Position numbers and translations under genes: made by a program
Assembly: GCA_028287235.1 (NCBI GenBank)
Contig: JAQBQB010000021.1
Coordinates: 1 to 64,000, forward strand
DNA from: Gemmatimonadota bacterium
Lineage (GTDB): Bacteria > Gemmatimonadota > Gemmatimonadetes > Gemmatimonadales > Gemmatimonadaceae
Direction of reading: 5' to 3'
DNA: 64,000 bases
Shown here: positions 11,391 to 58,476 of the stretch, piece after piece
How the letters are laid out: the number at the start of each line of letters is the position of its first letter
Position numbering within the stretch: the stretch's first letter is position 1
The notes under the pieces: generated by a model
The model's database searches: none
What the model saw: only the letters and a program-made list of their open reading frames with translations
Told to the model about the DNA's origin: nothing

Positions 11391-11421
11391 TCGAGAGGTG
11401 ACCCTCGGTGCTAGGTCACGT

Positions 11422-12993: not shown

Positions 12994-12997
12994 GAGT

Positions 12998-30268: not shown

Positions 30269-30331
30269 GGGCAGAGCTCGGACTGGTACGCCGATTGGAG
30301 TTGCAGCGCGCCGAACGAGATTGATGAAGCT

Positions 30332-30427
30332 CTAATCGGCTCGCAGCGCCGCGGTTGGATCGATGCGCGAGCAGCGCAGCTGTAACTCGGCAACCGGCGG
30401 CTTGGTCACATCCGCTGCACTCAATTT
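30332..30427 (-). pseudogene. C-terminal remnant of a MacB/FtsX-type ABC permease (ADOP-like)
   Basis: Read on the minus strand, the last codons before a TAG stop give ELQLRCSRIDPTAALRAD. The stretch SRIDPTAALRAD-stop matches the very conserved C-terminus of MacB/FtsX-type permeases, especially the duplicated orphan permeases common in Acidobacteria and Gemmatimonadota. Upstream of about 30427 no permease-like sequence continues. This is best read as the tail of a gene otherwise deleted, probably when the susCD operon was inserted or moved. Confidence 0.6.
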
Positions 30428-30587
30428 TCTTAGTGTACAGCGTCATTACAAGTCTTTGCATCCGTCCTGATTTTCCCGCTGTACGGCACGCATGCGTATA
30501 GGTCCATTCTATCACCGATTTGGGCCTTTCCGTCATACCATCCCTCTGGTCTGACGCTCGTCATTCCCTTCGTGAAGTGGAGGCGAT

Positions 30588-33566
30588 GTGAAAAGATTCG
30601 CGGTGTCCCTTTTGGCGATGCTCCTCATCGTTACGCTCGGTGCCAGCGCCTCGGCGCAGCGGCGGGTCACGGGGCGCGTCACCGACAGCACGGGCACGCC
30701 GATTCCCGGCGCGACCGTGAACGTGCAAGGCACGGCGCTGGGCGCGGGAACGAACGCGGACGGCCAGTACACCATCAACAACGTTCCGTTGGGCACGCAG
30801 ACGCTCATCGCGCGGCGCATCGGTTTCCGTCGCACGACGACCACGCTTCCGGTGAACGCGACGACCGCCGATTTCCGCATGGCGCGCGATCCGCTCCAGC
30901 TCGAGGAAGTGGTCGTCACCGGCCAGGCAACCACGGTATCGACGCAGAACTCGGCCAACTCGGTCGGAATCGTCAGCGGCGCCGAGCTGAATCGCGTGCC
31001 TCAAGCCAACATCGAGAACGCGCTCCAGGGCAAAGTGGCCGGCGCGGTGATCACACAGAACGGCGGCGCACCGGGCGGCGGCGTGCAGGTGCAAATTCGC
31101 GGCAGCAACACGGTCAACGGCGCGTTTCTGCCGTTGTACGTCGTGGATGGCGTGATCATCAACAACGACGCCATCTCGATCGGCTTGAACTCGATCACCG
31201 GCGCGGGCGCCGGCATCACGTCGAGCCAGGACCAGCAGGTAAACCGGGTGGCGGACCTGAACCCGGATGACATCGAGGACATCCAGATTCTCAAGGGTCC
31301 CTCGGCGGGCGCGATCTACGGCTCGCGCGGCGCCAACGGTGTCATCGTGATCACGACCAAGCATGGGCAAGCCGGCCACCCCTCGTTCAACATCACGCAA
31401 CGCCTGGGCACGCAGATGTTGGCGCATACCTACGACATCCGTTGCTTCAGCTTCGATCAGGCGGTGGCCGAAGCGAAGGCGGATTTCGGGTTGACCCTCA
31501 CGCCCGACCAGTACGCGGGATGCGTCGATCCGCAGCAGACGCTTTACGGCAATCACTTCCTGTCGTACGAGACGAACCTCGCGCTGCGCGGCGGCACGGA
31601 CAACGCCAACACGACGTATTTTCTGTCGGGCACGGTGCACCACGACGGCGGCCTGGCGCTGAACAGCGGCTACGGCAAGCAGTCGCTGCGGCTGAACCTC
31701 AATCAGCTCGTCGGCTCGAAGATCAACCTGCGCGCCTCGAGCGAGATTCTGCACACGTTGACCGAGCGCGGTATCTCCGGCAACGACAACAACAACATTG
31801 CGCCGTACACCATCATTGGTGCGACGCCGTCGTACTTCGATTTCAGCCGCATCGATCCGGTCACGGGCCAGCTCGTGAAGAATCCGTTCATCTCCGGCGG
31901 CGCGAACCCGCTCCAGAACGCGCAGGAGATCCGGACCCCCGAAGAGGTTTTCCGCCTGGTCGGCAACGTCTCGGGCGACTGGACGATCTTCACCAGCCAG
32001 CGCCAGAACCTGATGCTCACCGCGCTCGGCGGCGTCGACGCGTACAACGACCACGCCCGGGTCTATTCGCCGCCCGACACGTACGTGGAGCAGAGCGGCA
32101 ACATCAGCCCGTATCCGGGCACCGTGGTGGAAGGCAACGCCGACGTGGTGAACGCGAACCTGAACGCCTCGCTCATTCACAAGTTGACGATGCGGTCCGG
32201 AATCGCGACGACGTCCGTCGGCGTGAGCCAGGAACACTCGTCGAACGTACAGTCCAACGAGCAGGGACGCGGCCTGTTTCCGGGCATCACCAACTTTGCG
32301 ACGGCGGTTCAGACCGCGGTGTCGGAAAACCAGGCGATCACCAAGACCTTCTCGGTCTACGCCCAGGAGGAGTTTCTCACGCTCAAGGAGCGTCTGCTGG
32401 TCACGGCCGCCGTCAACGCGGAGCGCTCGAGCACGAACGGCGACACGGCGAAGTTTTACGCCTTCCCCAAGTACTCCGCGTCGTACAACGTGCCGTTCAC
32501 GCCGCGCGGCGTGGACTTCTTCAAGCTGCGCATCGCGACAGGCCGAGCGGGCAACCGCGTGCCGGTGAACTTCAAGTACACGTTCCTCACGCAGGTGCCG
32601 GAAAACGGAATCGTGGGGCTGCGTCCCTCGGCCACCGTGGGTCTGGCAAACGTCCAGCCGGAAGTGACGGGTGAGACGGAAGGGGGCTTCGACGCGCAGT
32701 TCCTCAAGGGCAAGGCTCAAGTCGACTTCACGCTCTATAAGAAGAAAACGACCGGTCTCGTGCTGCAGTCGTCGCCGCCGCCCTCGAGTGGCTTCACGAC
32801 GCAGATCATCAATGGCGGCTCACTCACCAATACCGGCGTCGAGGTGGGCCTCAACCTGCTGCCGATCGATTCGAAGATGTTGACGTGGCAGTCGCGGACC
32901 ACGTTCTCGCACAACCGCGGCCTGGTCACCTCCTTGCCGGTGCCGGCGTTCTACACGGGCAGCGTCTTTTCGGAGCGCTACGGCCGGACGAAGGTGCAGG
33001 TGGGGTACGCGCCGGACGAAGTCGTGGCGTACAACGGCTTCAACGCCGACAAGTCGCGGCACGAGGAGTTCTTCGGATCGGAGAGCCCGGACTTCGAGAT
33101 GGGGTTCGGCAACGACTTCACTCACGGACCGTTCCGCCTGTCCGGGTTGGTCGAGTGGCGTCACGGCGGCTATCTCGCCGACTTGAGCCAGTCGTATCTC
33201 GAAGACGGCTCGGGCCAAAGCGCCATCGCGGGCGGCAACTTCGCCAACACCACGATGGACAGCATCGACCAGGCGAACTTCGCCAAGGGGCTGCCGGTCT
33301 ATCTCGAGCACGCGAGCTTCGCCAAGCTGCGCGAGGTGACGCTCAGCTACTCGCTCAATTCGCGCCTGACGAACACGCTGTTCCGCGGCGCGGCGCACGA
33401 TGCGCGGCTCGAGATCAGCGGCCGCAATCTCTACACGTGGACGCACTATCGCGGGCTCGATCCCGAGGTGTCGAACTTCGGCAACTCGGCGCTCAGCCGA
33501 ATGCAAGACTTGGCGCCGTACCCGCCGAACCGACAGTTCTTCTTCTCGATCAACGCCAACTTCTAA
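30588..33566 (+). CDS. SusC/RagA family TonB-linked outer-membrane transporter
   Basis: The 992-residue product has a signal peptide (VSLLAMLLIVTLGASASAQ), a carboxypeptidase regulatory domain (~25-100, RRVTGRVTDSTGTPI ... LIARRIGFRRTT), and a plug (~108-255) with VQIRGSNTVNGAFLPLYVVDG and IQILKGPSAGAIYGSRGANGVI. The barrel ends in NRQFFFSINANF, a typical outer-membrane C-terminus ending in Phe. Start GTG 30588 is supported by GTGGAGG a few bases upstream. It is the first gene of the only rightward susCD pair in the window. Confidence 0.93.
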   Translation: MKRFAVSLLAMLLIVTLGASASAQRRVTGRVTDSTGTPIPGATVNVQGTALGAGTNADGQYTINNVPLGTQTLIARRIGFRRTTTTLPVNATTADFRMARDPLQLEEVVVTGQATTVSTQNSANSVGIVSGAELNRVPQANIENALQGKVAGAVITQNGGAPGGGVQVQIRGSNTVNGAFLPLYVVDGVIINNDAISIGLNSITGAGAGITSSQDQQVNRVADLNPDDIEDIQILKGPSAGAIYGSRGANGVIVITTKHGQAGHPSFNITQRLGTQMLAHTYDIRCFSFDQAVAEAKADFGLTLTPDQYAGCVDPQQTLYGNHFLSYETNLALRGGTDNANTTYFLSGTVHHDGGLALNSGYGKQSLRLNLNQLVGSKINLRASSEILHTLTERGISGNDNNNIAPYTIIGATPSYFDFSRIDPVTGQLVKNPFISGGANPLQNAQEIRTPEEVFRLVGNVSGDWTIFTSQRQNLMLTALGGVDAYNDHARVYSPPDTYVEQSGNISPYPGTVVEGNADVVNANLNASLIHKLTMRSGIATTSVGVSQEHSSNVQSNEQGRGLFPGITNFATAVQTAVSENQAITKTFSVYAQEEFLTLKERLLVTAAVNAERSSTNGDTAKFYAFPKYSASYNVPFTPRGVDFFKLRIATGRAGNRVPVNFKYTFLTQVPENGIVGLRPSATVGLANVQPEVTGETEGGFDAQFLKGKAQVDFTLYKKKTTGLVLQSSPPPSSGFTTQIINGGSLTNTGVEVGLNLLPIDSKMLTWQSRTTFSHNRGLVTSLPVPAFYTGSVFSERYGRTKVQVGYAPDEVVAYNGFNADKSRHEEFFGSESPDFEMGFGNDFTHGPFRLSGLVEWRHGGYLADLSQSYLEDGSGQSAIAGGNFANTTMDSIDQANFAKGLPVYLEHASFAKLREVTLSYSLNSRLTNTLFRGAAHDARLEISGRNLYTWTHYRGLDPEVSNFGNSALSRMQDLAPYPPNRQFFFSINANF

Positions 33567-33582
33567 GCGACCCATAGCCTAT

Positions 33583-34998
33583 ATGACAAAATTCAAAGCG
33601 GCGCTCGCGGGGATGCTCGTCCTTGCCGGCGCCTGCAGGGAAGGGCTGTCGGCGCCGAGCCAGGACGCGATCGTAGCGGGCAGCGCACAGCCGTTGCAGA
33701 ACCTCGTCACCGGCATCGCGGCGACGGATCGCGGACAAGCGTCGGCGTTCGCGTACCTGCTGTATCCGGAGACCATGGCGCGGAACACCGCCCGGATCGA
33801 TCCGAACGAGCCGCGCTTCATCAACGAGTTGATCGCGGTGCCGATCGACAACTCGGATTTCATCGGCGCGTCGGGGTGGACGGCCGGATTCCAGACCGTT
33901 CGTGCGGCGGACCAACTTCTCGCCGGGACCACGATCGCTGCCCTCGCGGCCGGCGATCAGAGCGCAACGCGGGGCTACGTCCAAACGATCAAGGCGCTGG
34001 ACTACATTCGCGTGGTGCAGCTTCGTGATTCGCTCGGCGCCCCGATCCAGGGCAACGATGCGTCGGTGATCGATCCATTCCGGACGAAGGCGGCGGTGCT
34101 GGCGTACGTCGCCGCGGTGCTCGATTCGGCGTATCAGAACCTGACCGCCTCGGGGGTCAGCGCCTCGTTCCCGTTCACGCTGCCGAGCGGCTACAAGGCG
34201 AGCGGCGATTACACCAAGACGGCGACATTCGCGCTGTTCAACCGCGGTCTCGCGGGCGAAGTGGCCGTGATGCGCGCCTTCGATCACCAGTCGCCGTGCA
34301 CGACGTGTTTTGCCGGCGCGATCACGGCGTTCAACATTGCTCTGGCCGGCTCCGGTGCGACGCCCTCGGCTGCGCAGCTCGCCGCCGGTCCGTATTACGA
34401 GTACAACCCGAGCGCGCCGGAGTCGTTCCCCAACCCGCTCGTGGACAATCACATTTTCCTCACCACCAACTTCGTCAACTCGATTCAGGCGGGCGATCTG
34501 CGCGCCTCCAAGATCGTCAAGGCGGCCGCGGCGTCTTCACAGGTGAGCGGACTGCAACTGACGATGCGCGATCCGATCACGGATCCGGCGATCACGGCGA
34601 ACCTGACGCGGACGATTCCGGCGCGCCGCAACGCGGATTTCTATTTGATTCGCGCCCAGGCCGAAGCGGAATCGGGAAATCTGGCCGGGGCGACGGCGGA
34701 TGTGAACGCCGTTCGCGTTGCCGAAGGCGGGCTGGCCCCGGTCGCGACGTTCGCGAGCGTGGCGGCCGCGCGAGCCGGCATACTCTACGAGATGCGCTAC
34801 TCGCTCGTGTACGAGGGTCCGTTCTATCTTCAGGCGCTGCGCGAGTACGGCGCGCTGACCAAGGCGTACGTGACGCAGGCGGGCATGCCGGCTCTGTCAT
34901 CGGATCCAGCGCATGCGAACGATCCACTCCAGACGGTGATTCCGATTCCGTCCGGCGAAGTCGCAGCACGCAGTGGAAACGTGACGCCGCAGCCGTAA
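33583..34998 (+). CDS. RagB/SusD family outer-membrane lipoprotein
   Basis: The 471-residue product has a lipoprotein signal (AGMLVLAGACRE, Cys ~18) and a SusD-like helical body. Its C-terminal region has ADFYLIRAQAEAESGNLAGA (~350), EMRYSLVYEGPFYLQALREYG (~405) and a closing IPIPSGEVAARSGN that matches the usual SusD C-terminal 'IP..E...N' pattern. It is 16 bases downstream of its susC. It is more divergent from the other three susD genes than two of those are from each other. Ends in a perfect terminator. Confidence 0.88.
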   Translation: MTKFKAALAGMLVLAGACREGLSAPSQDAIVAGSAQPLQNLVTGIAATDRGQASAFAYLLYPETMARNTARIDPNEPRFINELIAVPIDNSDFIGASGWTAGFQTVRAADQLLAGTTIAALAAGDQSATRGYVQTIKALDYIRVVQLRDSLGAPIQGNDASVIDPFRTKAAVLAYVAAVLDSAYQNLTASGVSASFPFTLPSGYKASGDYTKTATFALFNRGLAGEVAVMRAFDHQSPCTTCFAGAITAFNIALAGSGATPSAAQLAAGPYYEYNPSAPESFPNPLVDNHIFLTTNFVNSIQAGDLRASKIVKAAAASSQVSGLQLTMRDPITDPAITANLTRTIPARRNADFYLIRAQAEAESGNLAGATADVNAVRVAEGGLAPVATFASVAAARAGILYEMRYSLVYEGPFYLQALREYGALTKAYVTQAGMPALSSDPAHANDPLQTVIPIPSGEVAARSGNVTPQP

Positions 34999-39298: not shown

Positions 39299-40786
39299 CT
39301 AGCTGGTCGCGCGGATCATGCAGGCGATGATGTACTTGCCTTTCGTGCCCGCGTTGAGATCGCCCATGTTCTTCGACGACGCGGCGAACGCCACGTTCTC
39401 ACCGGTGGTGCAGGTCAGCGGATCCACGCCGACAAACGCCGTCACCAGCGCGAGACGAGTCGTCGTACGGAACCCGATGTTGCTCAGCGGCAACTGTCCC
39501 GCTCCCGGGGCCTTGGTGAAGCACAGGTAGAGATAGGAGCCGCCTGAACCCTTATTGAGATCGTTGTCGCCTAGTACCGTGTAGCCGTCCGGGCAGTTCA
39601 TGCCAGCCGAATTCGGCGTCTGGATGCCGATGTTGTAAATGGCGCGGCTGCGATCGGAACCCCACTGCAGGCACAGGAAGATGTAGTCTCCGCCGGCTCC
39701 CTCGTTGAGGTCTTGTCCCGTCGGTGCGTAGCCGTTTGGGCAGCCGGCCATTGCCGTTGCGAAATCAGCGTTCGACGTGACCGCGATATCGGTCAGGTAC
39801 GGGCCCGTCATCAGCGGCTGCCACAATCCCCAATTGCCCGCGTTGTCCGCGGCCAGCCGCATGAGCATGTTGCCGCCGGCTACCATCGCAATGAGCTCAG
39901 GCGTGTGCCTCTGTGAGTTATATGCGAGCGCGGGCGACGACGCGGCGTGCCACGGGCTCAACTCGTATTGCCAGCCGGACCAGCCGCCATTGGAATACGA
40001 CTGTCCGAAGAGCCGGTTGTCGGTGCCGAGTGCGCTCACATAGAGCGAGTTGCCTGCCGACGCGTACGCTGTCGGCGTCCCAACAATGCAGCAGCCCACC
40101 TGGGCGTACTCCGACCACGCGGTGCCGAGCCACGCCTTGGTGTACATATAGCTGCCGCCGCCCGCCATGAAGACGTCGAGGCGATTCGGTGCCCAGGATG
40201 CGACGGCGGGTCCACCGGCGAGGACGCCACCCAGCGACTCCCAACCCGACCAGCGCCCAGTGGACGTCGGCCAGAAGTTGTGGCCGAGCGTCTTGTCCAC
40301 GGCGTTGCGAGCGAAGACGTCGACCCGGTTCGGGCCCCACGACACGGATGTAGGATCGGAGTCGATGTTGCCGCCGAGATCTTCCCAAGCGGACCACGCG
40401 CTGCCGGTCAGCCAGCGGTGCGCGAGATGGTTGGACGCACCACGAACGAAGACGTCGATCGTGTTGTCCGGACGGACCGAGGCGCTCGGGCCGGAGAGGA
40501 GTGTTCCGGCCAACGACTCCCACACACTCCAGGAAGAGGTGGCATCCGCGCCGGCGCGCTCGCGGTGCCACAGTGCGTTGTCAGTTCCCTTCACGAACAC
40601 GTGGAGATGCTGGGAATTGTCCACCACCGCGCCTGGCTTATCGGTTGGCGAGGGACGAACGCAGCTCGGCGGCGTATCCCTATCGCGGAAGCATTGGGCG
40701 GAGAGTCGCGCGGAGCCGGCGGTGATCGCGACCATGGCCGCCGCTGCGGGAACGAACATGCGACGTACTGCAGGATGAATGGGCAC
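39299..40786 (-). CDS. Secreted PLL-like beta-propeller (lectin-like) protein, copy 1
   Basis: The 495-residue product has a signal peptide (FVPAAAAMVAITAGSARLSAQ). An N-terminal beta-propeller (~35-315) is built of repeats ending in patterns such as WSVWESLAGTLLSGPSAS, WSAWEDLGGNIDSDPTS and WSGWESLGGVLAGGPA, as in PLL-like fucose-binding propellers. The C-terminal ~180 residues carry repeated CPxGYxxxxDLNxGxGGxYIFLC blocks, resembling MABP-type beta-prism repeats. Probably binds glycans or lipids outside the cell (inference). GTG 40786 was chosen: GAGG lies six bases upstream, as in all three intact copies. It is ~90% DNA-identical by eye to copy 2 over the propeller but diverges in the C-terminal part. 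Confidence 0.78.
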   Translation of the reverse strand: MPIHPAVRRMFVPAAAAMVAITAGSARLSAQCFRDRDTPPSCVRPSPTDKPGAVVDNSQHLHVFVKGTDNALWHRERAGADATSSWSVWESLAGTLLSGPSASVRPDNTIDVFVRGASNHLAHRWLTGSAWSAWEDLGGNIDSDPTSVSWGPNRVDVFARNAVDKTLGHNFWPTSTGRWSGWESLGGVLAGGPAVASWAPNRLDVFMAGGGSYMYTKAWLGTAWSEYAQVGCCIVGTPTAYASAGNSLYVSALGTDNRLFGQSYSNGGWSGWQYELSPWHAASSPALAYNSQRHTPELIAMVAGGNMLMRLAADNAGNWGLWQPLMTGPYLTDIAVTSNADFATAMAGCPNGYAPTGQDLNEGAGGDYIFLCLQWGSDRSRAIYNIGIQTPNSAGMNCPDGYTVLGDNDLNKGSGGSYLYLCFTKAPGAGQLPLSNIGFRTTTRLALVTAFVGVDPLTCTTGENVAFAASSKNMGDLNAGTKGKYIIACMIRATS

Positions 40787-40929
40787 AGTGACCTCAGGAG
40801 AGGAGAATGAGCAGCGAGTGTCGCGTCCAACATCGGCGACCCTACTCACTTGGCGCTCACTCGCCTCTCCTGAAGTGGAGACCGGACGATTATCTGGCTG
40901 ATTATTTCATCGACTACTAACAACTCCGG
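40787..40929 (-). promoter_or_regulatory. Conserved leader of propeller copy 1
   Basis: This ~140-base leader is nearly identical to that at 42442-42575 and similar to 45897-46028. Common elements are GTCGCCGATGTTGG (minus strand; 40840-40827), a CAGGAGAGG ... CCTCTCCTG inverted repeat just upstream of the ribosome site, and an AT-rich stretch with GATAAT-like words at its far end. It probably holds promoter plus regulatory hairpin. Confidence 0.5.
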
Positions 40930-42441
40930 CTAGTTTGTCGCCCGGATCATACAGGCGATGATGTATTTACCCTTGGTCGTCTTCAGGTTGAGATTGCTCT
41001 GCTGCGCCTTCGCGGCGCCATACCGCACGTTGTCGCCGATGGTACAGGCGAGTTGATCTTCGCCCAAAATCGCCGGCACGAATTGCGCAAAGCCAGTCGC
41101 TGCTCGGAACCCTATGTTGCTCAGCGCCGATCCCGTATGCGGGTCTCTGGAGTAGCACAGGTAGAGAGAGGCGCCGCCCGCGCCTTTGTTGAGATCGTTG
41201 GCGTTGAGCACCTCATAGTTGGCCGGACAGCGGACATCATGATCCGTACCCGCCACCTGGATGCCGAGGTTGTAAATGGCGTGGAATCGATCAGATCCCC
41301 ACTGCAAGCACAGGAAGATGTAGTCGCCGCCGGCGCCCTCGTTGAGATCCTGCCCCGTCGGCGAGTAGCCCGCTGGGCAGCCATTCATGGCCGTTGCGTA
41401 GTCGGTGTTTGACGTGACCGCGATGTTGCTCAAGTACTGGCCCGACATCAGCGGCTGCCAGAATCCCCACGTGCCGGCGGCGTCCGCCGCGAGCCGCATG
41501 AGAATACCGCCCGGGATCATCGCAATGAGCTCAGGCGTGTGCCTCTGTGAGTTATATGCGAGCGCGGGCGACGACGCGGCGTGCCACGGGCTCAACTCGA
41601 ATTGCCAGCCGGACCAGCCGCCATTGGAATACGACTGTCCGAAGAGCCGGTTGTCGGTGCCGAGTGCGCTCACATAGAGCGAGTTGCCTGCCGACGCGTA
41701 CGCTGTCGGCGTCCCGACAATGCAGCAGCCCACCTGGGCGTACTCCGACCACGCGGTGCCGAGCCACGCCTTGGTGTACATATAGCTGCCGCCGCCCGCC
41801 ATGAAGACGTCGAGGCGATTCGGTGCCCAGGATGCGGCGGCGGGTCCACCGGCGAGGACGCCACCCAGCGACTCCCAACCCGACCAGCGCCCAGTGGACG
41901 TCGGCCAAAAGTTGTGGCCGAGCGACTTGTCCACGGCGTTGCGAGCGAAGACGTCGACGCGGTTCGCGCCCCACGACACGGATGTCGGATCGGAGTCGAT
42001 GTTGCCGCCGAGATCTTCCCAAGCGGACCACGCGCTGCCCGTCAGCCAGCGGTGGGCGAGATGGTTGGACGCACCACGAACGAAGACGTCGATCGTGTTG
42101 TCCGGACGGACCGAGGCGCTCGGTCCGGAGAGGAGTGTTCCGGCCAACGACTCCCACGCACCCCAGGGAGAGGTGGCATCCGCGCCGGCGCGCACGCGAT
42201 GCCACAGTGCGTTGTCAGTTCCCTTCACGAACACGTGGAGATGCTGGGCGTTGTCGACCACCGCGGCCGGCTTGTCGGTGGGCGACGGTCGGAGGCAGCT
42301 GGGGGGCGTGTCTGCGTCGCGGAAGCATTGGGCGGAGAGCCGCGCGGAGCCGGCGGTGATCGCGACCATGGCCGCGGCCGCGGGAACGAACATGCGGCGT
42401 GCTACATAGCGTACTACACGATGGAGTCGATGAATCGGCAC
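40930..42441 (-). CDS. Secreted PLL-like beta-propeller (lectin-like) protein, copy 2
   Basis: The 503-residue product has the same plan as copy 1: signal peptide (FVPAAAAMVAITAGSARLSAQ), propeller repeats (WGAWESLAGTLLSGPSAS, WSAWEDLGGNIDSDPTS, WSGWESLGGVLAGGPA) and C-terminal CPAGYSPTGQDLNEGAGGDYIFLC and NDLNKGAGGASLYLC blocks. The propeller half is almost unchanged from copy 1 at the DNA level, whereas the last ~190 codons differ at many sites. That is consistent with a recent tandem duplication or gene conversion of the first half. GTG 42441 has GAGG six bases upstream. It ends 143 bases before copy 1 starts. Confidence 0.78.
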   Translation of the reverse strand: MPIHRLHRVVRYVARRMFVPAAAAMVAITAGSARLSAQCFRDADTPPSCLRPSPTDKPAAVVDNAQHLHVFVKGTDNALWHRVRAGADATSPWGAWESLAGTLLSGPSASVRPDNTIDVFVRGASNHLAHRWLTGSAWSAWEDLGGNIDSDPTSVSWGANRVDVFARNAVDKSLGHNFWPTSTGRWSGWESLGGVLAGGPAAASWAPNRLDVFMAGGGSYMYTKAWLGTAWSEYAQVGCCIVGTPTAYASAGNSLYVSALGTDNRLFGQSYSNGGWSGWQFELSPWHAASSPALAYNSQRHTPELIAMIPGGILMRLAADAAGTWGFWQPLMSGQYLSNIAVTSNTDYATAMNGCPAGYSPTGQDLNEGAGGDYIFLCLQWGSDRFHAIYNLGIQVAGTDHDVRCPANYEVLNANDLNKGAGGASLYLCYSRDPHTGSALSNIGFRAATGFAQFVPAILGEDQLACTIGDNVRYGAAKAQQSNLNLKTTKGKYIIACMIRATN

Positions 42442-42575
42442 GGTGACCTCAGGAGAGGAGAATGAGCAGCGAGTGTCGCATCCAACATCGGCGACCGTAC
42501 TCACTCGGCACTCACTCGCCTCTCCTGAAGTGGAGATGGGGCGATTACCTGGCTGATTATTTCGTGGATTCCGGG
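42442..42575 (-). promoter_or_regulatory. Conserved leader of propeller copy 2
   Basis: Carries the same 14-base core (42495-42482 on the minus strand) exactly 41 bases upstream of the start codon, as in copy 1, and the CAGGAGAGG ... CCTCTCCTG inverted repeat beside the ribosome site. Confidence 0.5.
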
Positions 42576-42970
42576 CTAGCGGGTCACCCGGATCATACAG
42601 GCAATGATGTACTTACCTTTTGGAGTGCCCATGTTGAGGTTGCCCACCGCGTTCGTCGGTAAGGCACCGAGCCTCACGGTCTCGCCTGTGGTGCAGGTCG
42701 GTGGATCTATCCCCACCGTCGACGCGACGACCCCCATCGGCGAGTAGCCCGGCGAGCAATTGTTGATGGCACTTCCGTAGTCAGCGCTCGATGCGACCTC
42801 GATGTCGGTCAAGTACGGACCCGACATCAGCGGTTGCCAAAACCCCCAAGTGCCGGCGTTGTCCGATGCCAGGCGCATCAGAACGCCGCCGGATATCATC
42901 GCAATGAGCTCGGTCGTACCGTTTTGCGGATGATACGCGACCGCGGGCGACGGATTGACACCGTGGCCTT
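42576..42970 (-). pseudogene. Truncated propeller/lectin copy (C-terminal remnant with internal deletion)
   Basis: The frame gives SPAVAYH...TELIAMISGGVLMRLASDNAGTWGFWQPLMSGPYL, matching the end of the propeller in copies 1 and 2. It then runs CSPGYSPMG directly into VGIDPPTCTTGETV and ...TPKGKYIIACMIRVTR. The DLNEGAGGDYIFLC and DLNKG blocks between are missing, so ~100 codons are deleted inside. The N-terminal two thirds, signal peptide and start are also absent; the frame simply continues upstream into the secretin 3' end. A degraded third tandem copy, not expected to make a secreted protein. Confidence 0.75.
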
Positions 42971-42993
42971 GGGAAAAAGTATGAGTAGTACGC

Positions 42994-44442
42994 TCACGGC
43001 CGGATCGGACGATCGTCGCCGCGGGCGCCAAACGCGCCAGGAACAACGAGCGGCGGATCCATGCTTGGATCCCAGATGTGCGGTGTGATGAAAATGACGA
43101 CTTCCTGATTCTTTCCCGTCATGCTCTCCTGCGACCCAAATAGTTTGAGGAACGGGATATCGCGGAGAATCGGAATGCCTGTGTTGTCGTGCGATTGTCG
43201 GTCGAGCGCCAAGCCACCGATGATGATCGTCTGGCCGCTCGGCACCTGCATGCTCGTCTCGGCGACGTTCTTATCTGTCTCCGCTGCAGCGTTGTCCGTG
43301 GTCGGAATGAACTGCGACTCTTCCACGTGCATGTCCACGCGCACCCGGTTGCCCGGAAGCGCCGTCGGCGTGATGCGGAGCTGTACGCCCGTCTCCACGC
43401 TCGTCGAGCCCGCGGTCAGCTGTCCCGCCTGAAACGTCTGCGTGATGTAGTATCTCGTCCGACCGATATTGACGGTGGCTGGTTCGCCGCTGCGCGCGCT
43501 GATGTATGGACGGGCCACCACGCGTGCCTTGTCCGTGCCCGAGACCGCTTGAATCGCCGCAACGAACGCCTTGGGATTCGAGTGGCCGTATTCGCGTAAG
43601 AGCTGAAGTGTTGCGCCAGTCAGATTGCCGGGCGTGAAGAGGATCTGACTGAAGTTGCCGGTCTGGCCGCCGGAGAAACTCACGCCGAGCTGGCGCATCG
43701 TCTCGACGTCGAACTCCACGACGAGCGCTTCGAGGAACACGTGCTGCGTCGGCTGGTCGGCGCGGCGGATGATCGCTATGGCTTGGTTGACGTCTGCTTC
43801 AGATCCCCAGAGTAGAACGCGGCTGCGCGCCGCGTCGAACAGCGCGCGCAACTGACCGCCGCGCAAAAAGCCGTCGACGAGCGCGCCGGCCGCCTTGGCG
43901 TCGAGGTGCTCGACGGGTACCTCACTTTGAACCGTCGGCAACGCCCGTCCCTGGGGTTCGCCCATCGCCTGGCTCTGAGGTCCGCCCATTGTCGGTCCTG
44001 CTTGTGCCGCCGCGGCGGTCGGCGCGGCGGGCCGAACAACCACGAGTCCGTCGCGAAGCACCGCCGTGAAGTCGTGCGGTTCGAGGAGAATGTTGAGCCC
44101 CGCGACGAGCGGCTGCTGCTCGAATCGCGCTGTCACCATCCCGGAGGGAGCGCCGCCCTCGTAGACAAACCCCTGCGGCGCCGCCTCGAGCGCACGGCGC
44201 AGCACAGCCGCTACAGATGCGTCGCGCACGTCGACGCTGAGTGTGAGCGCCGGGCTCGCACCGGCGACTTCGACGCGGCCGTATCGCGCGCGCGCGAGGC
44301 TGTCCTCGCGCGCGCGCACCGCCACGTTTTCCGTGCGGTACGCTTCCATGAGTTGTGGCAGGTCCGGATGCGTCTTCCGGAGCGGGCCGATGCAACCGGT
44401 CGCGAACACGGCGATGGGGACAACGCGGACCAGAGCGCGCAT
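42994..44442 (-). CDS. Lipoprotein secretin (GspD/PulD-like outer-membrane channel)
   Basis: The 482-residue product starts with a lipoprotein signal (VPIAVFATGC, Cys17). An STN-like/N0 domain (~60-130, LSVDVRDASVAAVLRRAL ... GLVVVRP), a linker and an N-domain (~170-235, VPVEHLDAKAAGALVDGFL) follow. The secretin core (~240-460) contains VFLEALVVEFDVETMRQLGVSF, ...NIGRTRYYITQTF, VETGVQLRITPTALPGNRV, SGQTIIIGGL and KNQEVVIFITPHI. Secretins form multimeric outer-membrane gates for type II/III/IV pilus systems. No other secretion genes are here; instead its start overlaps the upstream lectin-like gene by one base (TGATG). Confidence 0.85.
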   Translation of the reverse strand: MRALVRVVPIAVFATGCIGPLRKTHPDLPQLMEAYRTENVAVRAREDSLARARYGRVEVAGASPALTLSVDVRDASVAAVLRRALEAAPQGFVYEGGAPSGMVTARFEQQPLVAGLNILLEPHDFTAVLRDGLVVVRPAAPTAAAAQAGPTMGGPQSQAMGEPQGRALPTVQSEVPVEHLDAKAAGALVDGFLRGGQLRALFDAARSRVLLWGSEADVNQAIAIIRRADQPTQHVFLEALVVEFDVETMRQLGVSFSGGQTGNFSQILFTPGNLTGATLQLLREYGHSNPKAFVAAIQAVSGTDKARVVARPYISARSGEPATVNIGRTRYYITQTFQAGQLTAGSTSVETGVQLRITPTALPGNRVRVDMHVEESQFIPTTDNAAAETDKNVAETSMQVPSGQTIIIGGLALDRQSHDNTGIPILRDIPFLKLFGSQESMTGKNQEVVIFITPHIWDPSMDPPLVVPGAFGARGDDRPIRP

Positions 44443-45896
44443 CACCTCGCGGCCCGAGTCAAGCACATGATGATGAACTTCCCGTTGTTGCCTTGGTTGA
44501 AATCACTCGTGAAGTTGAAATTCATTCTCGCGCCGTACGTGCAGTCGAAGTGCCGCGCCCCTGTCACATCGGAATTCCTCGTTTCGAACACGATCTCGTG
44601 CAACGGGTCACCGTGGGGCTGGGTGCTGAAGCACAGCTGCATGAAGTCCCCGCCGGTGCCTTCGTTGAGGTTCTCGGGTAGCCTGGTGCCGTGATCTGGA
44701 CCGAGACAGTAAGCAGCGGGCTCAGTGTGGTTATCCATTACGAGGACGCCGACGTCGTAGATGGCGCGGGCCGAACTGGAGCTCCGCCGCACGCACAGGT
44801 AGATGTAGGCGCCGCGCGCGCCCTCGTTGAGATCCTGAGCCAGGGGCACATAGCCCACCGGGCAGCGGGCCATGGCTATTCCGTTGTCGACGCTCGACGC
44901 TATCGCCAGGCCGGTGATGTACGTGCCCGACATCAGCGGCACCCACGTTCCCCATGTGCCTGGGCCAGTGGACATGAGGTCCATGAGGTATCCGCCAGCG
45001 CCCATCGCGACGATCTCGGTGACGCCATCGTGATACGCCACTGCGGGCGATGACGTCGCGGCCCACGTGCTCAACTCATATTGCCAACCCGACCAGGCGC
45101 CGGAATACGTCTGCGCGAAGAGCCGGCCATCGGTGCCGCGCGCGGTCACGAAGAGTGAGTTCGTTCCCGCGGTGTATGCCGCCGGCGTCCCGATGATGCA
45201 GCAGCCTTCGTGATCGTAGTCCGACCATGCTGTGCCGTTCCAAGACTTGTGATACATGTAGGAGTCGCTGCCTGCCACGAAGACGTCGAGCCGGTTCGGG
45301 GCCCAGGATGTGACTGCGGGTCCGCCACTGAGCACGCCGTTCAACGACTCCCACGCCGACCAAGTGCCGTTGGCCGGCCAGTAGATGTGGTCGAGATGAG
45401 TGGTCGTTGCGTTGCGGGCGAACACATCGATGCGGTTCGCGGCCCACGAGACCGAGGCAGGGTCGGAGTCGATGTTGCCGCCGAGGTCCTCGAACGTGGA
45501 GAAGTGGCCGCCGGTCCGCATGAGGTGGAACAGATGATTGCGGCCGCCGCGAACGAAGACGTCGATGGTGGTGGTGCCGGGACGAAGAGAGACGCTGGCC
45601 CCGGAGAGGAGCACGCCGCCCAGCGACTCCCACGGTGACCAGTGGGAGAGGAGAACATCCGGTCCGCCCCGCACGGCGTGCCAGAGCGCGTTGTCTGTGC
45701 CCTTCACGAACACGTGAAGAGTCGTGCCCTCCACTAGCAAGGCCGGCGTGTCGGTCGGCGAGGGACGGTTACAAGAGGGATAAGGCTCCGTGTCAACGAA
45801 GCATTGCGCGGGGAGCCGCACGGCAAGGGCGGTGATTGCGAGCGCGGCGGCGGCCGCGCGACCGAGCGTGCGGCGCGCAACGTGTTGGATTTGCAC
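44442..45896 (-). CDS. Secreted PLL-like beta-propeller (lectin-like) protein, copy coupled to secretin
   Basis: The 484-residue product has a signal peptide (AAAAALAITALAVRLPAQ) and the same propeller repeats as copies 1-2 in diverged form (WSPWESLGGVLLSGAS, FEDLGGNIDSDPAS, WSAWESLNGVLSGGPA). C-terminal QDLNEGARGAYIYLC, ENLNEGTGGDFMQLC and DFNQGNNGKFIIMC blocks show three MABP-like repeats. Cysteines flank these blocks. GTG 45896 follows GAGG. The stop TGA shares its A with the secretin ATG, so the two are translated together; the propeller may be a secretin partner or cargo (inference). Older in sequence than the tandem pair. Confidence 0.8.
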   Translation of the reverse strand: MQIQHVARRTLGRAAAAALAITALAVRLPAQCFVDTEPYPSCNRPSPTDTPALLVEGTTLHVFVKGTDNALWHAVRGGPDVLLSHWSPWESLGGVLLSGASVSLRPGTTTIDVFVRGGRNHLFHLMRTGGHFSTFEDLGGNIDSDPASVSWAANRIDVFARNATTTHLDHIYWPANGTWSAWESLNGVLSGGPAVTSWAPNRLDVFVAGSDSYMYHKSWNGTAWSDYDHEGCCIIGTPAAYTAGTNSLFVTARGTDGRLFAQTYSGAWSGWQYELSTWAATSSPAVAYHDGVTEIVAMGAGGYLMDLMSTGPGTWGTWVPLMSGTYITGLAIASSVDNGIAMARCPVGYVPLAQDLNEGARGAYIYLCVRRSSSSARAIYDVGVLVMDNHTEPAAYCLGPDHGTRLPENLNEGTGGDFMQLCFSTQPHGDPLHEIVFETRNSDVTGARHFDCTYGARMNFNFTSDFNQGNNGKFIIMCLTRAAR

Positions 45897-46028
45897 GGGA
45901 GCCTCAAATGGAGAGTGAGTTCGAACGTGCGCCAACATCGGCGACGCCCCTCACCCGGCGCTCACTTGCCGCTCTCGTACTCGAGGCTCTGCGATTACCT
46001 GATCAATTTTCTCGAGATCGGCGCGCTT
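45897..46028 (-). promoter_or_regulatory. Conserved leader of secretin-linked propeller gene
   Basis: The 14-base core (45945-45932 on the minus strand) lies 36 bases upstream of the start. Flanking GAGAG...GTGAG and CTCACTCTC words form a partly different inverted repeat that occupies the same place as in copies 1 and 2, suggesting a conserved structure. Confidence 0.45.
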
Positions 46029-48896
46029 CTAGCGGCTCAGCGTGGCCAGCCGCGCCTTCGCCGCTGTCACGACCGGCGCCAGCTCTGGGTCGGCGTCCGC
46101 CCAGAGCGCGAGGAAGCGGCGATACGAAACCGCGGCCGCCGCTCGCTCGCCGAGAGCTTCGTGGAACTGCGCTTCGCGAAGCCGCGCGGCCGGCGCGTAC
46201 ATGAAGTCGTAGCCCGCTGGATCAGGAAAGGTCGACAGCCAGGCCAGAGCATCCTGCGGGCGATGCACGTCGGACAACAGCTCCGCGCGGAGAAACCGCT
46301 CATGCGCGAGAGGGAAGCTGTACACGTGCGGCAGCCGGTGATCGGGAGCGAGGTGGGGCTCTCCGAGAAGCGCGAGCGCCCGCGCCGAGTTCCCGGCGGA
46401 ACGCATCGCCTCTGCCCTCACGACGCGCGCGAAACGGTGTGAATACGCGGTGTCCGCGCTTCGGACGGACCTGAAAGCGTCGAGCGTGCGCGCGGAGCGC
46501 TCCGCGGTCGCGGTGTCTCCCGCGCGGACCGCGAGCATACCCAACAAATAGTGACGGAGCGGCACCGTCATAGGATGCACGGCAGTACGCGGCAGCGGCA
46601 AAGAGAGAGCACGCGCCGCACGGAGTCGTTCAGCCGGCGCAGCCTGGGGCAGCGGCAGCATTGCGAGCACGGCACGGTATTCCACAGCGTGTCCCTCGTG
46701 GAGCGACATCGCCGAATCGACGGTTGCGGAGGCGGCGCGCGCGTGCCCCCGAGCGAGCTGGAATTGCGCTCGCAGGAACATCATGCCGGCGTCGCGAGAC
46801 TCGAAGGTCTGCCGAGCGAAGAAGGGGGGAACCAATAGCTCGGCGACGTCCGCTTGGTCCGGAGACGCCACGGCCACGCTCTCGAGGATGCCGCGCGCGA
46901 CAGACACGGGAATGAGCGCGAAGCGCTCGGCGGCGACGACGCGTCCGGGATGATCGCCGAACGCAAAAGCCCTAAGGAGGCGTAGCTCGATCACGCGGTT
47001 TTCGTCGGGATCCGAGCGCTCGAGCTGCGACGCCAAGCGATTGAACTCCACGCTGTCGCCCGCCCGAGCGGCAAGACGCGCGGCGTGAAGCAGCGCGCTC
47101 GCGTTGCGCGGCTCGAGCTCCAGTGCCCGCCGCCAGTCGGGCCGTGAATCGACCGAAGGACGACCGAGGCTCGGTCCCCAATGGAACGCGATCTCCGCGA
47201 GCTGCGTCCGCGCCTCCAAGTCGTACTCGTCATCGGCGGCGAGACGGCGATAGAGAAACTCCGCCGAATCTGCGACGCCGCGAAGGTAGAGACTCCATGC
47301 TTCCACCCCAGCGCGTTGGCGCGTGGCGAGCCGCCCGCTGTATGCAAGCGCGCGTTCCGCCGCCCAATCGGCGATTGCACTCTGGGCGGTCCAACTGGCC
47401 GCGCCGCTCAAGCCGCGATACGCGAGCGCGAAGGTGCTGTCGCCATCGATGGCGCGCTGGAATGCTGAAACCGCGGCGGGATATCGCCCGCTCGTGTACT
47501 CCGCCTCGCCGCGCAGATATGCGCGCAGCGCTTCAATAGAGTGCGTCGTGAGAGCGGCCGACCGATAGCGCCGTGCCGGCGCGCTGGCGTCGAGCTGCGT
47601 CATCAGTTGCGCGGCGAGCGCATCGACGAGCTCGAACAAATCGCCCGGCTTGCCGTCCACCTTTGCGTTCACCACGGTCCCGACTGCGTTGGGTGCTCCG
47701 ATCGATGCAGAGATGCGGAGCCGTCCGCCTGCCTCGGTGACTTCGCCGACGATGAACCGTTCCGCGCCGAACCGCTGCGCGAGCTTCGCACCCTCCTCCA
47801 TCGTTGCGGGGCCGGCGGCGGTGCCGCGCTCCGAGGCGACCGCGCGCGCGCCGACCGTTTTCAGGTCGCCCGCGCCGTCGAGGTCAGAGTCGAGAAGGTG
47901 GGCGATGCCCGCGCCGAGGTAGGAGAGATCGGGGCCGCCGTTGTACGTGAAGGGCAAGACCAGCACAGTCCGCGCGGCATTGGAGGACACGGCCGCACTG
48001 CGATTCCGAAGCGCGAGAGTGCCGGCGCCCGCAGCGAACAACGCGGCGGCGACGAGCGCGGCGACGCCTTTGCGACGACGCCATCGTCGCCCGGTTGCGG
48101 ACGAGACGGCCGCGACCAGGGCCAGTGGTTGTTCCACGGCCACCGGTGTCGCAGACGTCGCCGGATGATACATGTTGACGTCGACGCGCGTGCGCACCGA
48201 GGCGAGCAACGACTGGGTCTCGGGCGACGGGTCCGCGCCGTACTCTTCCTGAAGCTGGCGGGCGAACTGCGCGTACTCTCGGAGCGCGCCGGCGCGGTCG
48301 CCGGTGCGATCGTGCAGCGCCATCAAGCGACGCACCGACTGTTCGTCGGGATGGATGTTCGCCGCGCGCTGGCCCCAGGCAAGCGCCGTCGTCGCATCGC
48401 CAGCGCCGGCAGCGCGCTCGGCGAGGGTCCACGCGGATGACGCGGCGCGGCGAGCGAGCCGCGTCCGTTCGTTGCCGAGCCATTCTTCGAACGCGGGAGC
48501 GTCCTTCAGAAAAAAACCCGCGAGTAGCGGGCCGCGATACCACTCGAGCGCTTCCTCGTGCGCGTCGCGGGCCACGGCTTCCTCGAAGGCGATGACGTCG
48601 CACGAGAGGCGTTCAGGATCGACGCTTACCGCGCCGCCTTCGCGAGTCACGATCACACCCGGTCCGACCACGCGCCGCAAGAAATGGAGCGACTGATTGA
48701 GCGCTTGGCGCGCACGCTCGGCGTCGGACTCGGGCCAGAAGCATGCGAGCAGCGAGTCGCGGCGATGCAGGTCGCGCGGCTCGGCCGCGACGAGGTATGC
48801 AAGCAGCGCGGTCCGTTTGGGTTGGGCCAGTGCCGCGGTTAGCGCTGTCTCCGACGAGTCACGAAGATCGAGCGCGCCGAGCAGCCGGAGCCGCAT
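46029..48896 (-). CDS. BTAD/SARP-type regulator with membrane segment and TPR-like C-terminus
   Basis: The 955-residue product opens with an OmpR/SARP winged helix (residues 1-95, including FWPESDAERARQALNQSLHFLR) and a bacterial transcriptional activation (BTAD) helical domain (~96-240). One transmembrane helix follows (~276-296, after RRWRRRKG). A periplasmic or cytoplasmic C-terminal part begins with VLVLPFTYNG (~311), as in TolB-N-like/adenylate-cyclase-associated modules, and continues with TPR-like helices to the end. ATG 48896 was preferred to TTG 48911. Such membrane-anchored regulators are common in Gemmatimonadota. It is directly upstream of the propeller/secretin operon and may control it (inference). 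Confidence 0.82.
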   Translation of the reverse strand: MRLRLLGALDLRDSSETALTAALAQPKRTALLAYLVAAEPRDLHRRDSLLACFWPESDAERARQALNQSLHFLRRVVGPGVIVTREGGAVSVDPERLSCDVIAFEEAVARDAHEEALEWYRGPLLAGFFLKDAPAFEEWLGNERTRLARRAASSAWTLAERAAGAGDATTALAWGQRAANIHPDEQSVRRLMALHDRTGDRAGALREYAQFARQLQEEYGADPSPETQSLLASVRTRVDVNMYHPATSATPVAVEQPLALVAAVSSATGRRWRRRKGVAALVAAALFAAGAGTLALRNRSAAVSSNAARTVLVLPFTYNGGPDLSYLGAGIAHLLDSDLDGAGDLKTVGARAVASERGTAAGPATMEEGAKLAQRFGAERFIVGEVTEAGGRLRISASIGAPNAVGTVVNAKVDGKPGDLFELVDALAAQLMTQLDASAPARRYRSAALTTHSIEALRAYLRGEAEYTSGRYPAAVSAFQRAIDGDSTFALAYRGLSGAASWTAQSAIADWAAERALAYSGRLATRQRAGVEAWSLYLRGVADSAEFLYRRLAADDEYDLEARTQLAEIAFHWGPSLGRPSVDSRPDWRRALELEPRNASALLHAARLAARAGDSVEFNRLASQLERSDPDENRVIELRLLRAFAFGDHPGRVVAAERFALIPVSVARGILESVAVASPDQADVAELLVPPFFARQTFESRDAGMMFLRAQFQLARGHARAASATVDSAMSLHEGHAVEYRAVLAMLPLPQAAPAERLRAARALSLPLPRTAVHPMTVPLRHYLLGMLAVRAGDTATAERSARTLDAFRSVRSADTAYSHRFARVVRAEAMRSAGNSARALALLGEPHLAPDHRLPHVYSFPLAHERFLRAELLSDVHRPQDALAWLSTFPDPAGYDFMYAPAARLREAQFHEALGERAAAAVSYRRFLALWADADPELAPVVTAAKARLATLSR

Positions 48897-49098
48897 TGTC
48901 TGGCTTGTCAAAGTTGGGTGCGGTGGGTGCCGTCGGCTGGGGCACGCTCGGCTCTCGCAATTTCAAAGGAGGGGATGAGTGCGTCAAGCGATTCACGGCT
49001 TTGAACGTCAGTTCTTCGTAACAAGTGATCGCAAAGCGCCCCGTAAGCGGCAGATCACCGGCGCAGCGTACACTCGAGCATCCTTCAACCATTTTCCG

Positions 49099-49794
49099 AT
49101 GCGCAGCCGTCCCGTTTTCCGCACCCTTGCTCTTCTCGCCATTCTCCCGGTGCTCGTCACGATCGCCGCACCGCTCGATTCGTCACTCGGCGCGCAGCGC
49201 TCGCCGGATTACAGCTGCCCGCTCGACGGCGCACCGCTCATCCCGGAACCGGATGCCCTCGGAATCGGCGGCTGGCCGACCGGGGGCGCGTTTGACGACA
49301 CACGCGCGGATGGTATCAGCGCGGCCGGCGATCGCATCATGCGGCCGCACGGCGCGTGGGAGCTCGCGGCCGGCGAAGGCGCGAACGTGCACGCGGTGCG
49401 CGGCGGCCGCGTTGCCGCATCAGCGGTGTGGCCGAACCTGGGCAACGTCGTGATCGTCGATCATGGAGACGGCGAATACGCCGTGTATGGACTGCTCGGC
49501 ACCCGGACGGCGCGCGAGGGTGCGACCATCGCGCGCGGCGAAGTCATTGGCACCGTGGGTTTCTCCGGCGACGGCGCGGTCGTCCACGCCCGGCTTCCAT
49601 CGGCCTCGGCACGACTTCACCTCGCGCTGGTGGTTGCCGGCCGAAGTGGGTTAGCCGATGCCGGCCAACCATTGCGCCAACTCGCCGGCTGGACAGACGC
49701 ATGGCGGCAGACGATCGCGGGCGTGACCGGCCCGATCGATCCGGGAATCCGGCTGCCCGCAACCTGCCGGGCCGGTCGGCGAACGACGCAGTAG
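49099..49794 (+). CDS. LytM/M23-fold protein with degenerate zinc motifs
   Basis: The 231-residue product has a signal peptide (ALLAILPVLVTIAAPLDSSLGAQ) and an M23-like beta domain: GANVHAVRGGRVAASAVWPNLGNVVIVDHGDGEYAVYGLL (quoted by its ends GANVHAVRGG and YAVYGLL), then GEVIGTVGFSGDG. The first zinc motif HxxxD is replaced (RPHGAWELA) and the second HLHFE is reduced to RLHLAL, so the peptidase is probably inactive. Non-catalytic LytM proteins such as EnvC activate amidases or act as scaffolds. ATG 49099 gives the signal peptide at the N-terminus. Confidence 0.7.
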   Translation: MRSRPVFRTLALLAILPVLVTIAAPLDSSLGAQRSPDYSCPLDGAPLIPEPDALGIGGWPTGGAFDDTRADGISAAGDRIMRPHGAWELAAGEGANVHAVRGGRVAASAVWPNLGNVVIVDHGDGEYAVYGLLGTRTAREGATIARGEVIGTVGFSGDGAVVHARLPSASARLHLALVVAGRSGLADAGQPLRQLAGWTDAWRQTIAGVTGPIDPGIRLPATCRAGRRTTQ

Positions 49795-49877: not shown

Positions 49878-50924
49878 TCAGAGTTTCGTCCGAATCGCGT
49901 TCACCGCCCCGTGCAGCGCGTCGGCGGTCGCCTGCGTGATCTTATGAGAATTCAATGCCGCGTCGATCTTGTTGTCGGTGGAGTTCAGCTTCCCTTTCAC
50001 CGAGGTGACCGGCGCGTTGCTCTGGATCGCGTCCGCCACCTGTTGGAGCGAGGCTGTGATCGTCGACGCCGTCTTCGGTTCGATTGCCCCGCTCGACGCG
50101 AGCGCTTGAACGGCGGAAATCGCGACGGTCGTGAGCGCGGCCGCCGTGGGCGGACAGATACCGGCGCTCCCCGCGTTGTAGATCGAGCTGACTTCGCCGG
50201 CGGTGAGCGCCCGGTCGTACAGCGCCGCATCGTCGATCAGGCCCGCGAAGAACGACGGGCCGCCAACGAACTCTGGGAACGCGCCGAACTTCGCGCCGAA
50301 CGACGCATCGGTGTTGAGAACCCCGAAGAGCCCTCCCATCGCCTGGCCGTTCGTGTAGATGATCGCGTGATTGCCGTCGTACGTCATGGCGACGTGCATC
50401 CATCCGTCGGGCGACGGCATGCCGGAATAGAACGACGCGTCGTAGCCCCAGGTGAAAAACTGAAGATTCGGATAGCCGTCGAAGTCCAGGCTGAACGCGC
50501 GCTGGAGTTCCTGGCCGCCCGTGTGAAACGGCGTGTGGCGATCGCCGTCCCACTGCGACGCCGACACGTAGAGCCAAAACGTCCACGTCCGCGCGGCGGC
50601 GCCGGCGGGCATCGTCGCGGAGGTGGGGACGAACACATAGCCGTCTCCCGCAAGCGAGAATGCGTCGCCGACCATCCCGGGGGCGTACGACACGTTGCCC
50701 GTGGCGATTCCATTGTTGGTGCCAAGCGCGTCCGCGGTTGTGCCGTCACCGGTCCAATGGCTGACGAGACCTCCAAGAACCGCGGCGCACGTGCCGGGCG
50801 TGATGCTGTGCGAAGCCGGGCCATTGGCGGCAATTCGGGGAGTGGTGACGCCTTGATTGTCCTGACACGCTGTGGCGGCAACGAGCAACGAGAGCGTTGC
50901 CATGAGGCGGGCGGTGCTTCGCAT
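49878..50924 (-). CDS. LamG-domain lipoprotein with C-terminal FIMAH-like domain
   Basis: The 348-residue product has a lipoprotein signal (LSLLVAATACQD, Cys ~20). A LamG/concanavalin-like jelly roll (~45-260) reads LVSHWTGDGTTADALG, RTWTFWLYVSASQWDG, DGWMHVAMTYDG and FAGLIDDAALYDRALTAGEV, the last being the standard LamG ending. A helical C-terminus (~275-348, ending DALHGAVNAIRTKL) resembles the FIMAH-type domain found at the ends of extracellular proteins. LamG domains bind glycans or calcium. ATG 50924 begins the signal; upstream frame is Arg/Ser-rich. Confidence 0.82.
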   Translation of the reverse strand: MRSTARLMATLSLLVAATACQDNQGVTTPRIAANGPASHSITPGTCAAVLGGLVSHWTGDGTTADALGTNNGIATGNVSYAPGMVGDAFSLAGDGYVFVPTSATMPAGAAARTWTFWLYVSASQWDGDRHTPFHTGGQELQRAFSLDFDGYPNLQFFTWGYDASFYSGMPSPDGWMHVAMTYDGNHAIIYTNGQAMGGLFGVLNTDASFGAKFGAFPEFVGGPSFFAGLIDDAALYDRALTAGEVSSIYNAGSAGICPPTAAALTTVAISAVQALASSGAIEPKTASTITASLQQVADAIQSNAPVTSVKGKLNSTDNKIDAALNSHKITQATADALHGAVNAIRTKL

Positions 50925-51044
50925 CGGAATCCCTGGAGAGGAGGGGGCTGACGGCGTCGGCTCGTCGGCGGACAGGGTACAGACGGAGGGAGAGGAACAG
51001 CGGCCGCTAACGTACTGCGCCAGGCCGTCGCGTGCCACAACGCG

Positions 51045-58475: not shown

Positions 58476-58476
58476 C

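What the first reader, a model, noticed from the sequence alone, without database searches (positions are those of the whole stretch)
39299..46028. Lectin-like beta-propeller genes built around a lipoprotein secretin: possible undescribed export/adhesion system
Three propeller genes and one remnant surround a secretin, all leftward. One propeller stop shares a base with the secretin start (TGATG), which links their translation. Secretins are outer-membrane gates of larger machines, yet no other secretion gene is here. Propeller proteins with C-terminal DLNxGxGG repeats look like secreted glycan/lipid binders. The set, with a membrane-bound BTAD regulator directly upstream, could be a compact display or secretion unit. 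The linkage and sequences are seen; the joint function is inference.
Basis: partly seen in the sequence, partly recalled or inferred. Interest (0 to 1): 0.8.

Follow-up and report, generated by a model that had tools for sequence, protein, structure and literature searches.

The report
Orphan secretin with lectin-like propeller proteins
A Gemmatimonadaceae bacterium carries two copies of a small gene set that pairs an outer-membrane gate protein with secreted sugar-binding-type proteins, a membrane-bound regulator and a cell-wall-enzyme relative, which suggests a dedicated exit route for these lectins, though no experiment has shown it.

Summary
Three DUF346/PLL-type propeller genes and one propeller remnant flank a lipoprotein secretin. 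The TGATG overlap is real, and a transmembrane BTAD-TPR regulator lies directly upstream. Each propeller protein is a PLL/PHL-type lectin propeller fused to a C-terminal DLN beta-prism like that of Mpf2Ba1.

The association is more than chance. The same genome holds a second locus (contig C22) with the closest paralogues of all four parts: regulator 45%, secretin 51%, M23-like protein 46%, and two propellers. Of the genome's eight secretins, only these two lack a nearby ATPase or Pil operon. In a sister genus, the same secretin subfamily sits beside an unrelated exported protein family found nowhere else in 179 family genomes. The TGATG junction itself is not conserved.

Best reading: an accessory module in which a self-piloting, pIV/PilQ-like mini-secretin is a dedicated outer-membrane exit for co-encoded Sec-exported lectins, probably borrowing a motor from one of the genome's T2SS or T4P platforms. 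Export is inferred, not shown. New variant of a known kind, moderate interest.

The parts
44442..45938 (-). Propeller A: signal peptide (likely GTG start 45896), PLL/PHL-type beta-propeller, C-terminal DLN beta-prism with three DLN-like motifs
   Evidence: PF03984 E 3e-7; PDB sequence hits PLL3/PHL E 3e-64 and 2e-63; Foldseek top 22 hits all PLL/PHL, TMt about 0.7; Mpf2Ba1 hit
42994..44442 (-). Lipoprotein mini-secretin (STN/N0-like, one Secretin_N, secretin domain); ATG in the TGATG overlap
   Evidence: PF00263 E 3.6e-34; PHROG 1012 pIV E 1.3e-34 over residues 70-457; paralogue at C22 51%
42576..42980 (-). Propeller remnant B: last blade(s) and broken C-terminal domain, no signal peptide
   Evidence: 73-residue, 55% match to propeller A; 75-81% DNA match to C and D
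40930..42504 (-). Propeller C (likely GTG start 42441)
   Evidence: PF03984 E 1e-8; 85.9% DNA identity with D over 1.71 kb; DLN beta-prism matches Mpf2Ba1 E 3e-16
39299..40849 (-). Propeller D (likely GTG start 40786)
   Evidence: PF03984 E 5e-9; C and D propeller parts 93% identical, C-termini 63%, dN/dS 0.24 and 0.44
46029..48911 (-). One-component regulator: N-terminal winged-helix/BTAD, one apparent transmembrane segment, TolB_N/TPR C-terminal part presumably periplasmic
   Evidence: PF03704 E 1e-13, TPR; closest paralogue C22:14895-17786, 45% over full length, next best much weaker
48979..49794 (+). Exported M23/LytM-like protein, divergent from the regulator; lacks the YxH and first HxH histidines
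   Evidence: PF01551 E 2e-14; closest paralogue C22:14066-14731, 45-46%
45897..46028 (-). Leader/promoter region of propeller A, sharing a stretch (CAGGTAATCGC...CGCCGATGTTGG) with the leaders of C and D
   Evidence: alignment of the three leaders

Best explanation
This is an accessory, duplicated gene module. Shown by sequence, its parts are (1) a one-component transmembrane BTAD-TPR regulator, (2) a compact lipoprotein secretin, (3) signal-peptide-bearing lectin proteins made of a PLL-type propeller plus a variable C-terminal domain, here a DLN beta-prism, and (4) an exported, catalytically degenerate M23/LytM-like protein. Inferred: the lectins reach the periplasm by Sec and fold there; the secretin needs no pilotin because it is itself a lipoprotein, and forms the outer-membrane ring through which they leave or are displayed; the M23-like protein helps the ring sit in or cross peptidoglycan; the regulator senses a periplasmic signal and switches the set on. 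Because no ATPase, platform protein or pseudopilin is encoded nearby, the secretin most likely works as an alternative outer-membrane exit for one of the genome's T2SS or T4P platforms. Outside, the lectin would bind glycans with its propeller and possibly lipid membranes with its cation-holding prism.
For: All four parts have their best paralogues together on contig C22 within about 10 kb: secretin 51% and propellers 41%, regulator 45%, M23-like 46%, gene order. Three further parts falling by chance within 10 kb of the second secretin in a 5.7-Mb genome is of the order of 1e-7 (my arithmetic). All propellers of this type found in the genome lie at these two loci. Of eight secretins, five have a T2SSE-type ATPase within about 9 kb, one (C23) is PilQ in a pilMNOPQ operon, and only these two are orphans. 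The lipobox Cys is invariant in the 4 aligned relatives. In sister genus g13 the same secretin subfamily (47%) lies beside an unrelated exported protein family found in only 2 of 179 family genomes, both at the secretin, as if the secretin stays and the cargo changes. Propeller genes are under purifying selection. The propeller is PLL/PHL-type; the DLN motifs of Mpf2Ba1 hold a metal ion in its membrane-binding prism (PMC10344926). Lipoprotein secretins that need no pilotin are known (PMC4471445).
Against: No motor or platform gene in either locus, and no direct evidence of substrate-secretin contact. The TGATG junction is not kept at C22. One relative (G316) has only DsbB/DsbA-like genes and a TonB-C-like reading frame nearby, though its contig ends about 0.7 kb upstream. 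None of the five other genomes of the genus examined has the secretin. In two relatives PLL-type propellers occur with no secretin on their short contigs, apparently fused to proteases, so such propellers do not always need this secretin.
Confidence: 0.45

Rival explanations
1. A motor-free two-partner system: the secretin alone, like the pore of a two-partner secretion pair, lets its own folded lectin through the outer membrane, with folding or ligand binding as the driving force.
For: Secretin and cargo are adjacent or near at both loci, and in the sister genus with a different cargo; no ATPase nearby. The secretin has a short pIV-like layout.
Against: Well-studied secretins work with an inner-membrane motor or platform (established knowledge), and this genome has several that could be shared.
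Confidence: 0.12
2. The lectins do not pass through the secretin but bind it at the surface or in the periplasm, forming a surface structure or a gated receptor/adhesin; the lectin is exported by an ordinary T2SS.
For: Propellers and prisms are binding modules; the DLN prism is a membrane-binding fold. The genome has several T2SS-like clusters.
Against: Does not explain why the secretin subfamily lies next to different exported proteins in different lineages.
Confidence: 0.2
3. Co-regulated but mechanistically separate genes: a response island in which lectins, orphan secretin and M23-like protein act independently under one BTAD regulator.
For: The four parts are shuffled between the two loci, so only linkage is conserved; the regulator has several weaker relatives in this genome.
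Against: A secretin without any substrate is hard to explain; the closest paralogy holds for all four parts at once.
Confidence: 0.18
4. The secretin is a leftover of a filamentous phage or of a decayed T2SS or pilus, and the neighbourhood is chance.
For: Its one PHROG match is pIV of M13, and phage pIV-type proteins match at 23-28% identity.
Against: No other phage-assembly gene among the flanking genes scanned and no ATPase on the contig; two intact paralogues with matching neighbours; dN/dS 0.39 between them.
Confidence: 0.05

Closest known systems
PLL/PHL family of seven-bladed propeller lectins (Photorhabdus)
   Same: Same repeat (DUF346), same fold by sequence and by structure search
C-terminal DLN beta-prism of Mpf2Ba1 and related bacterial MACPF proteins
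   Same: Repeated DLN-G-GG motifs aligning at E 3e-16
   Different: No MACPF pore-forming domain; the prism is attached to a lectin propeller
Filamentous-phage pIV and short lipoprotein secretins (BfpB, HxcQ type)
   Same: Short periplasmic part plus secretin domain; lipobox; PHROG 1012 E 1.3e-34
   Different: No phage or pilus genes beside it
Orphan T2SS secretin XqhA of Pseudomonas aeruginosa (recalled from memory; papers found mention it only in passing)
   Same: Secretin away from a platform operon that can plug into another T2SS
   Different: Here linked to lectin genes and a BTAD regulator, and short and lipidated
Two-partner secretion (type Vb)
   Same: Cargo and dedicated outer-membrane pore encoded together
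   Different: The pore is a secretin, not an Omp85-type barrel with POTRA domains

Membership tests
Secretin family (PF00263) | C-terminal secretin domain above curated cut-off | tested here: met
   118 bits against cut-off 27.5
Type II secretion system GspD | NCBIfam equivalog GspD score above cut-off | tested here: not met
   105 bits against cut-off 351
Type II secretion system locus | GspE-type ATPase encoded near the secretin | tested here: not met
   No T2SSE match on contig C18 or C22
Type IV pilus PilQ | NCBIfam PilQ cut-off and pilMNOP neighbours | tested here: not met
   114 bits against cut-off 284; the genome's PilQ is on C23
Filamentous phage pIV | Zot/pI and other inovirus genes beside it | tested here: not met
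   None of the flanking genes scanned with Pfam (39.3-51.0 kb) matches such a family
Lipoprotein (self-piloting) secretin | Lipobox Cys at the end of the signal peptide, conserved in relatives | tested here: met
   C17 invariant in 4 aligned relatives
Lipoprotein (self-piloting) secretin | Lipidation and pilotin-free outer-membrane assembly | not testable with these tools
   Needs biochemistry
PLL-type lectins | DUF346 repeats and propeller fold | tested here: met
   the model is of moderate confidence (mean pLDDT 52, most propeller blocks 55-86)
PLL-type lectins | Sugar binding | not testable with these tools
   No binding data
DLN beta-prism (Mpf2Ba1 type) | Three DLN motifs around a three-fold axis | tested here: inconclusive
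   Sequence match and three DLN-like motifs per protein, but that part of the model has pLDDT below 50
Active M23 peptidase | Catalytic histidines YxH and HxH | tested here: not met
   YGLLG/YAFLG and ARLH/PRMH in the two module copies; the nearest homologue outside the module, in G372, keeps YAHLS and HLHF
Two-partner secretion (type Vb) | Omp85-type pore with POTRA domains | tested here: not met
   The pore protein is a secretin; no POTRA or barrel family among the flanking genes scanned

The most novel reading that the evidence does not exclude
A secretin-based two-partner export system: a lipidated mini-secretin that by itself, without ATPase or pseudopilus, exports a co-encoded folded cargo, with the cargo family exchanged between lineages (lectin propellers in one, a different exported repeat protein in another).
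Probability: 0.12. Interest if true: 0.85.

Novelty: new variant of a known kind. Interest (0 to 1): 0.5.

Why it matters
Secretins are thought of as the outer gates of large machines. A secretin subfamily that travels with its presumed cargo and not with a machine would show either how bacteria add substrates to an existing T2SS by adding a second exit, or that a secretin can work alone. Both can be tested with a few gene deletions. It would also give Gemmatimonadota a defined candidate locus for lectin export.

Tried and rejected
Filamentous phage origin: no phage-assembly genes beside the secretin; phage relatives only 23-28% identical. Scans of viral contigs found no relative of the secretin and one weak propeller. 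A plasmid search gave only partial propeller hits at 26-30%. The first genome-contig scan found nothing; the second, with a four-row alignment, found only the three sister-genus loci. The third-closest regulator (contig C15) has no secretin, propeller or M23-like relative near it. Structure prediction of the secretin was poor (mean pLDDT 49), so no fold search was run on it. The sister-genus companion proteins (795/951 aa) had no Pfam, NCBIfam or PDB match, and the exported protein behind one secretin, PLC-like by eye, had none either. The recalled MABP/Vps62 idea for the C-terminal domain was replaced by the closer DLN prism of Mpf2Ba1. A paper search for 'orphan secretin' found nothing relevant.

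Full report
What is there. Propellers A, C and D, remnant B and the secretin are all present and leftward as described. The junction of A and the secretin is GCGAGGTGATG: stop and start share one base and a Shine-Dalgarno lies just upstream. The best starts of the propellers are internal GTG codons, which give ordinary signal peptides. The leaders of A, C and D share a stretch of sequence.

The cargo-like proteins. Pfam sees only DUF346, but PDB sequence search gives PLL3 and PHL at 3e-64 and 2e-63. The predicted model is of moderate confidence (mean pLDDT 52, most propeller blocks 55-86), yet its first 22 PDB hits are all PLL/PHL lectins. The C-terminal part of propeller C matches the DLN beta-prism of Mpf2Ba1 at 3e-16; A and D carry similar sets of three DLN-like motifs. 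In Mpf2Ba1 three DLN motifs hold a metal ion and the prism is the membrane-binding domain (PMC10344926). Here there is no MACPF domain. C and D are a tandem copy of 1.71 kb at 85.9% DNA identity. Their propellers are 93% identical but their C-termini only 63%, with dS 0.15 against 0.61. This points to conversion or exchange of the propeller part and divergence of the tail; dN/dS is below 0.5 in both parts.

The secretin. It has a signal peptide with a lipobox, a weak STN, one weak Secretin_N and a clear secretin domain. It falls far below the NCBIfam cut-offs for GspD, SctC and PilQ. The one PHROG family it matches is pIV of M13, over residues 70-457. The genome has eight secretins. Four lie within about 9 kb of T2SSE-type ATPases on C1 (two) and C15 (two), and one beside a shorter ATPase match on C16, Tad-like by inference. 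C23 is PilQ in what reads as a pilMNOPQ operon. Only the window's secretin and the one on C22 have no such partner.

The second locus. Contig C22 carries, in order, two propellers, a 558-residue exported protein and an M23-like protein on the minus strand, then divergently the regulator and the secretin on the plus strand. Each counterpart is the closest relative in the genome of the window's gene: secretin 51%, regulator 45% over its length, M23-like 46%, next best 33% over a short stretch. The propellers are 41% identical to A over the propeller part. This duplicated association is the main argument that the finding is not chance. It also shows that the TGATG junction and the gene order are not essential. 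The C22 propeller proteins keep the propeller but have other C-termini, so the propeller is the constant part.

The M23-like part. The window copy and the C22 copy both lack the YxH and first HxH histidines, while the nearest homologue found outside the module (G372) keeps both. It is thus likely a binding or scaffolding protein, as other degenerate LytM proteins are (established knowledge), not a hydrolase.

Distribution. In 395 genomes of the phylum and 179 of the family, the secretin subfamily occurs in this genome and in three genomes of one sister genus. A scan of 84,980 species genomes found only those same three, though that tool relies on short peptide patterns and may miss others. None of the five other genomes of the same genus has it. 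In two of the three sister-genus loci an exported protein of 795 or 951 residues lies beside, or one gene away from, the secretin; this family was found in only those two of 179 genomes. In one of them a further exported protein lies directly behind the secretin. The third locus (G316) has DsbB- and DsbA-like genes behind the secretin and ends about 0.7 kb upstream. The 795/951 loci are orthologous (both beside LeuRS and a cysteine-synthase-like gene), so they count as one event.

Interpretation. The gene set behaves as an accessory module whose constant part is the secretin and whose exported neighbours change. The simplest reading is a dedicated outer-membrane exit for co-encoded exported proteins, with the motor borrowed from one of the genome's platforms. 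Each step beyond gene content is inference: Sec export from signal peptides read by eye, self-piloting from the lipobox, passage through the secretin from linkage, and regulation from the regulator's position and layout. Motor-free export, surface complex formation without export, and mere co-regulation remain open.

Limits. Proteins were called by ORF and codon composition, not by annotation. The sister genomes are draft assemblies with contig ends near the loci. The secretin model was poor.

Noticed in passing
window 49878-51038: Lipoprotein-like protein with a Laminin_G_3 (concanavalin A-like) domain next to the M23-like gene, convergent; could be another glycan binder of the set but has no counterpart at the second locus.
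   Followed up: partly
L051 12402-14078: 558-residue exported protein without family match between the M23-like gene and the propellers; a 20-residue piece of its C-terminus recurs at 9017-9076 behind the second propeller, a trace of local duplication.
   Followed up: partly
L061 10289-12676 and L062 8274-11129: Exported repeat proteins (795 and 951 aa) without Pfam, NCBIfam or PDB match, found in two genomes only, both beside the orphan secretin.
   Followed up: yes
L072 3626-5317 and L073 3260-5521: PLL-type propellers apparently fused to a matrixin-like metalloprotease and to a subtilase-like protein in other Gemmatimonadota, judged by reading the sequence.
   Followed up: no
window 5819-16186 and 26856-34998: Several SusC/SusD-like genes (large TonB-dependent receptors with lipoprotein partners), judged by reading.
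   Followed up: no
window about 55400-63000: Genes that look prophage-like by reading: ParB-like, HNH-type and DNA-methylase-like proteins.
   Followed up: no
window 42576-43046: Propeller-like sequence begins within about 50 bases of the secretin stop, as if the 5' half of an older propeller gene had been replaced by the propeller A-secretin pair.
   Followed up: partly
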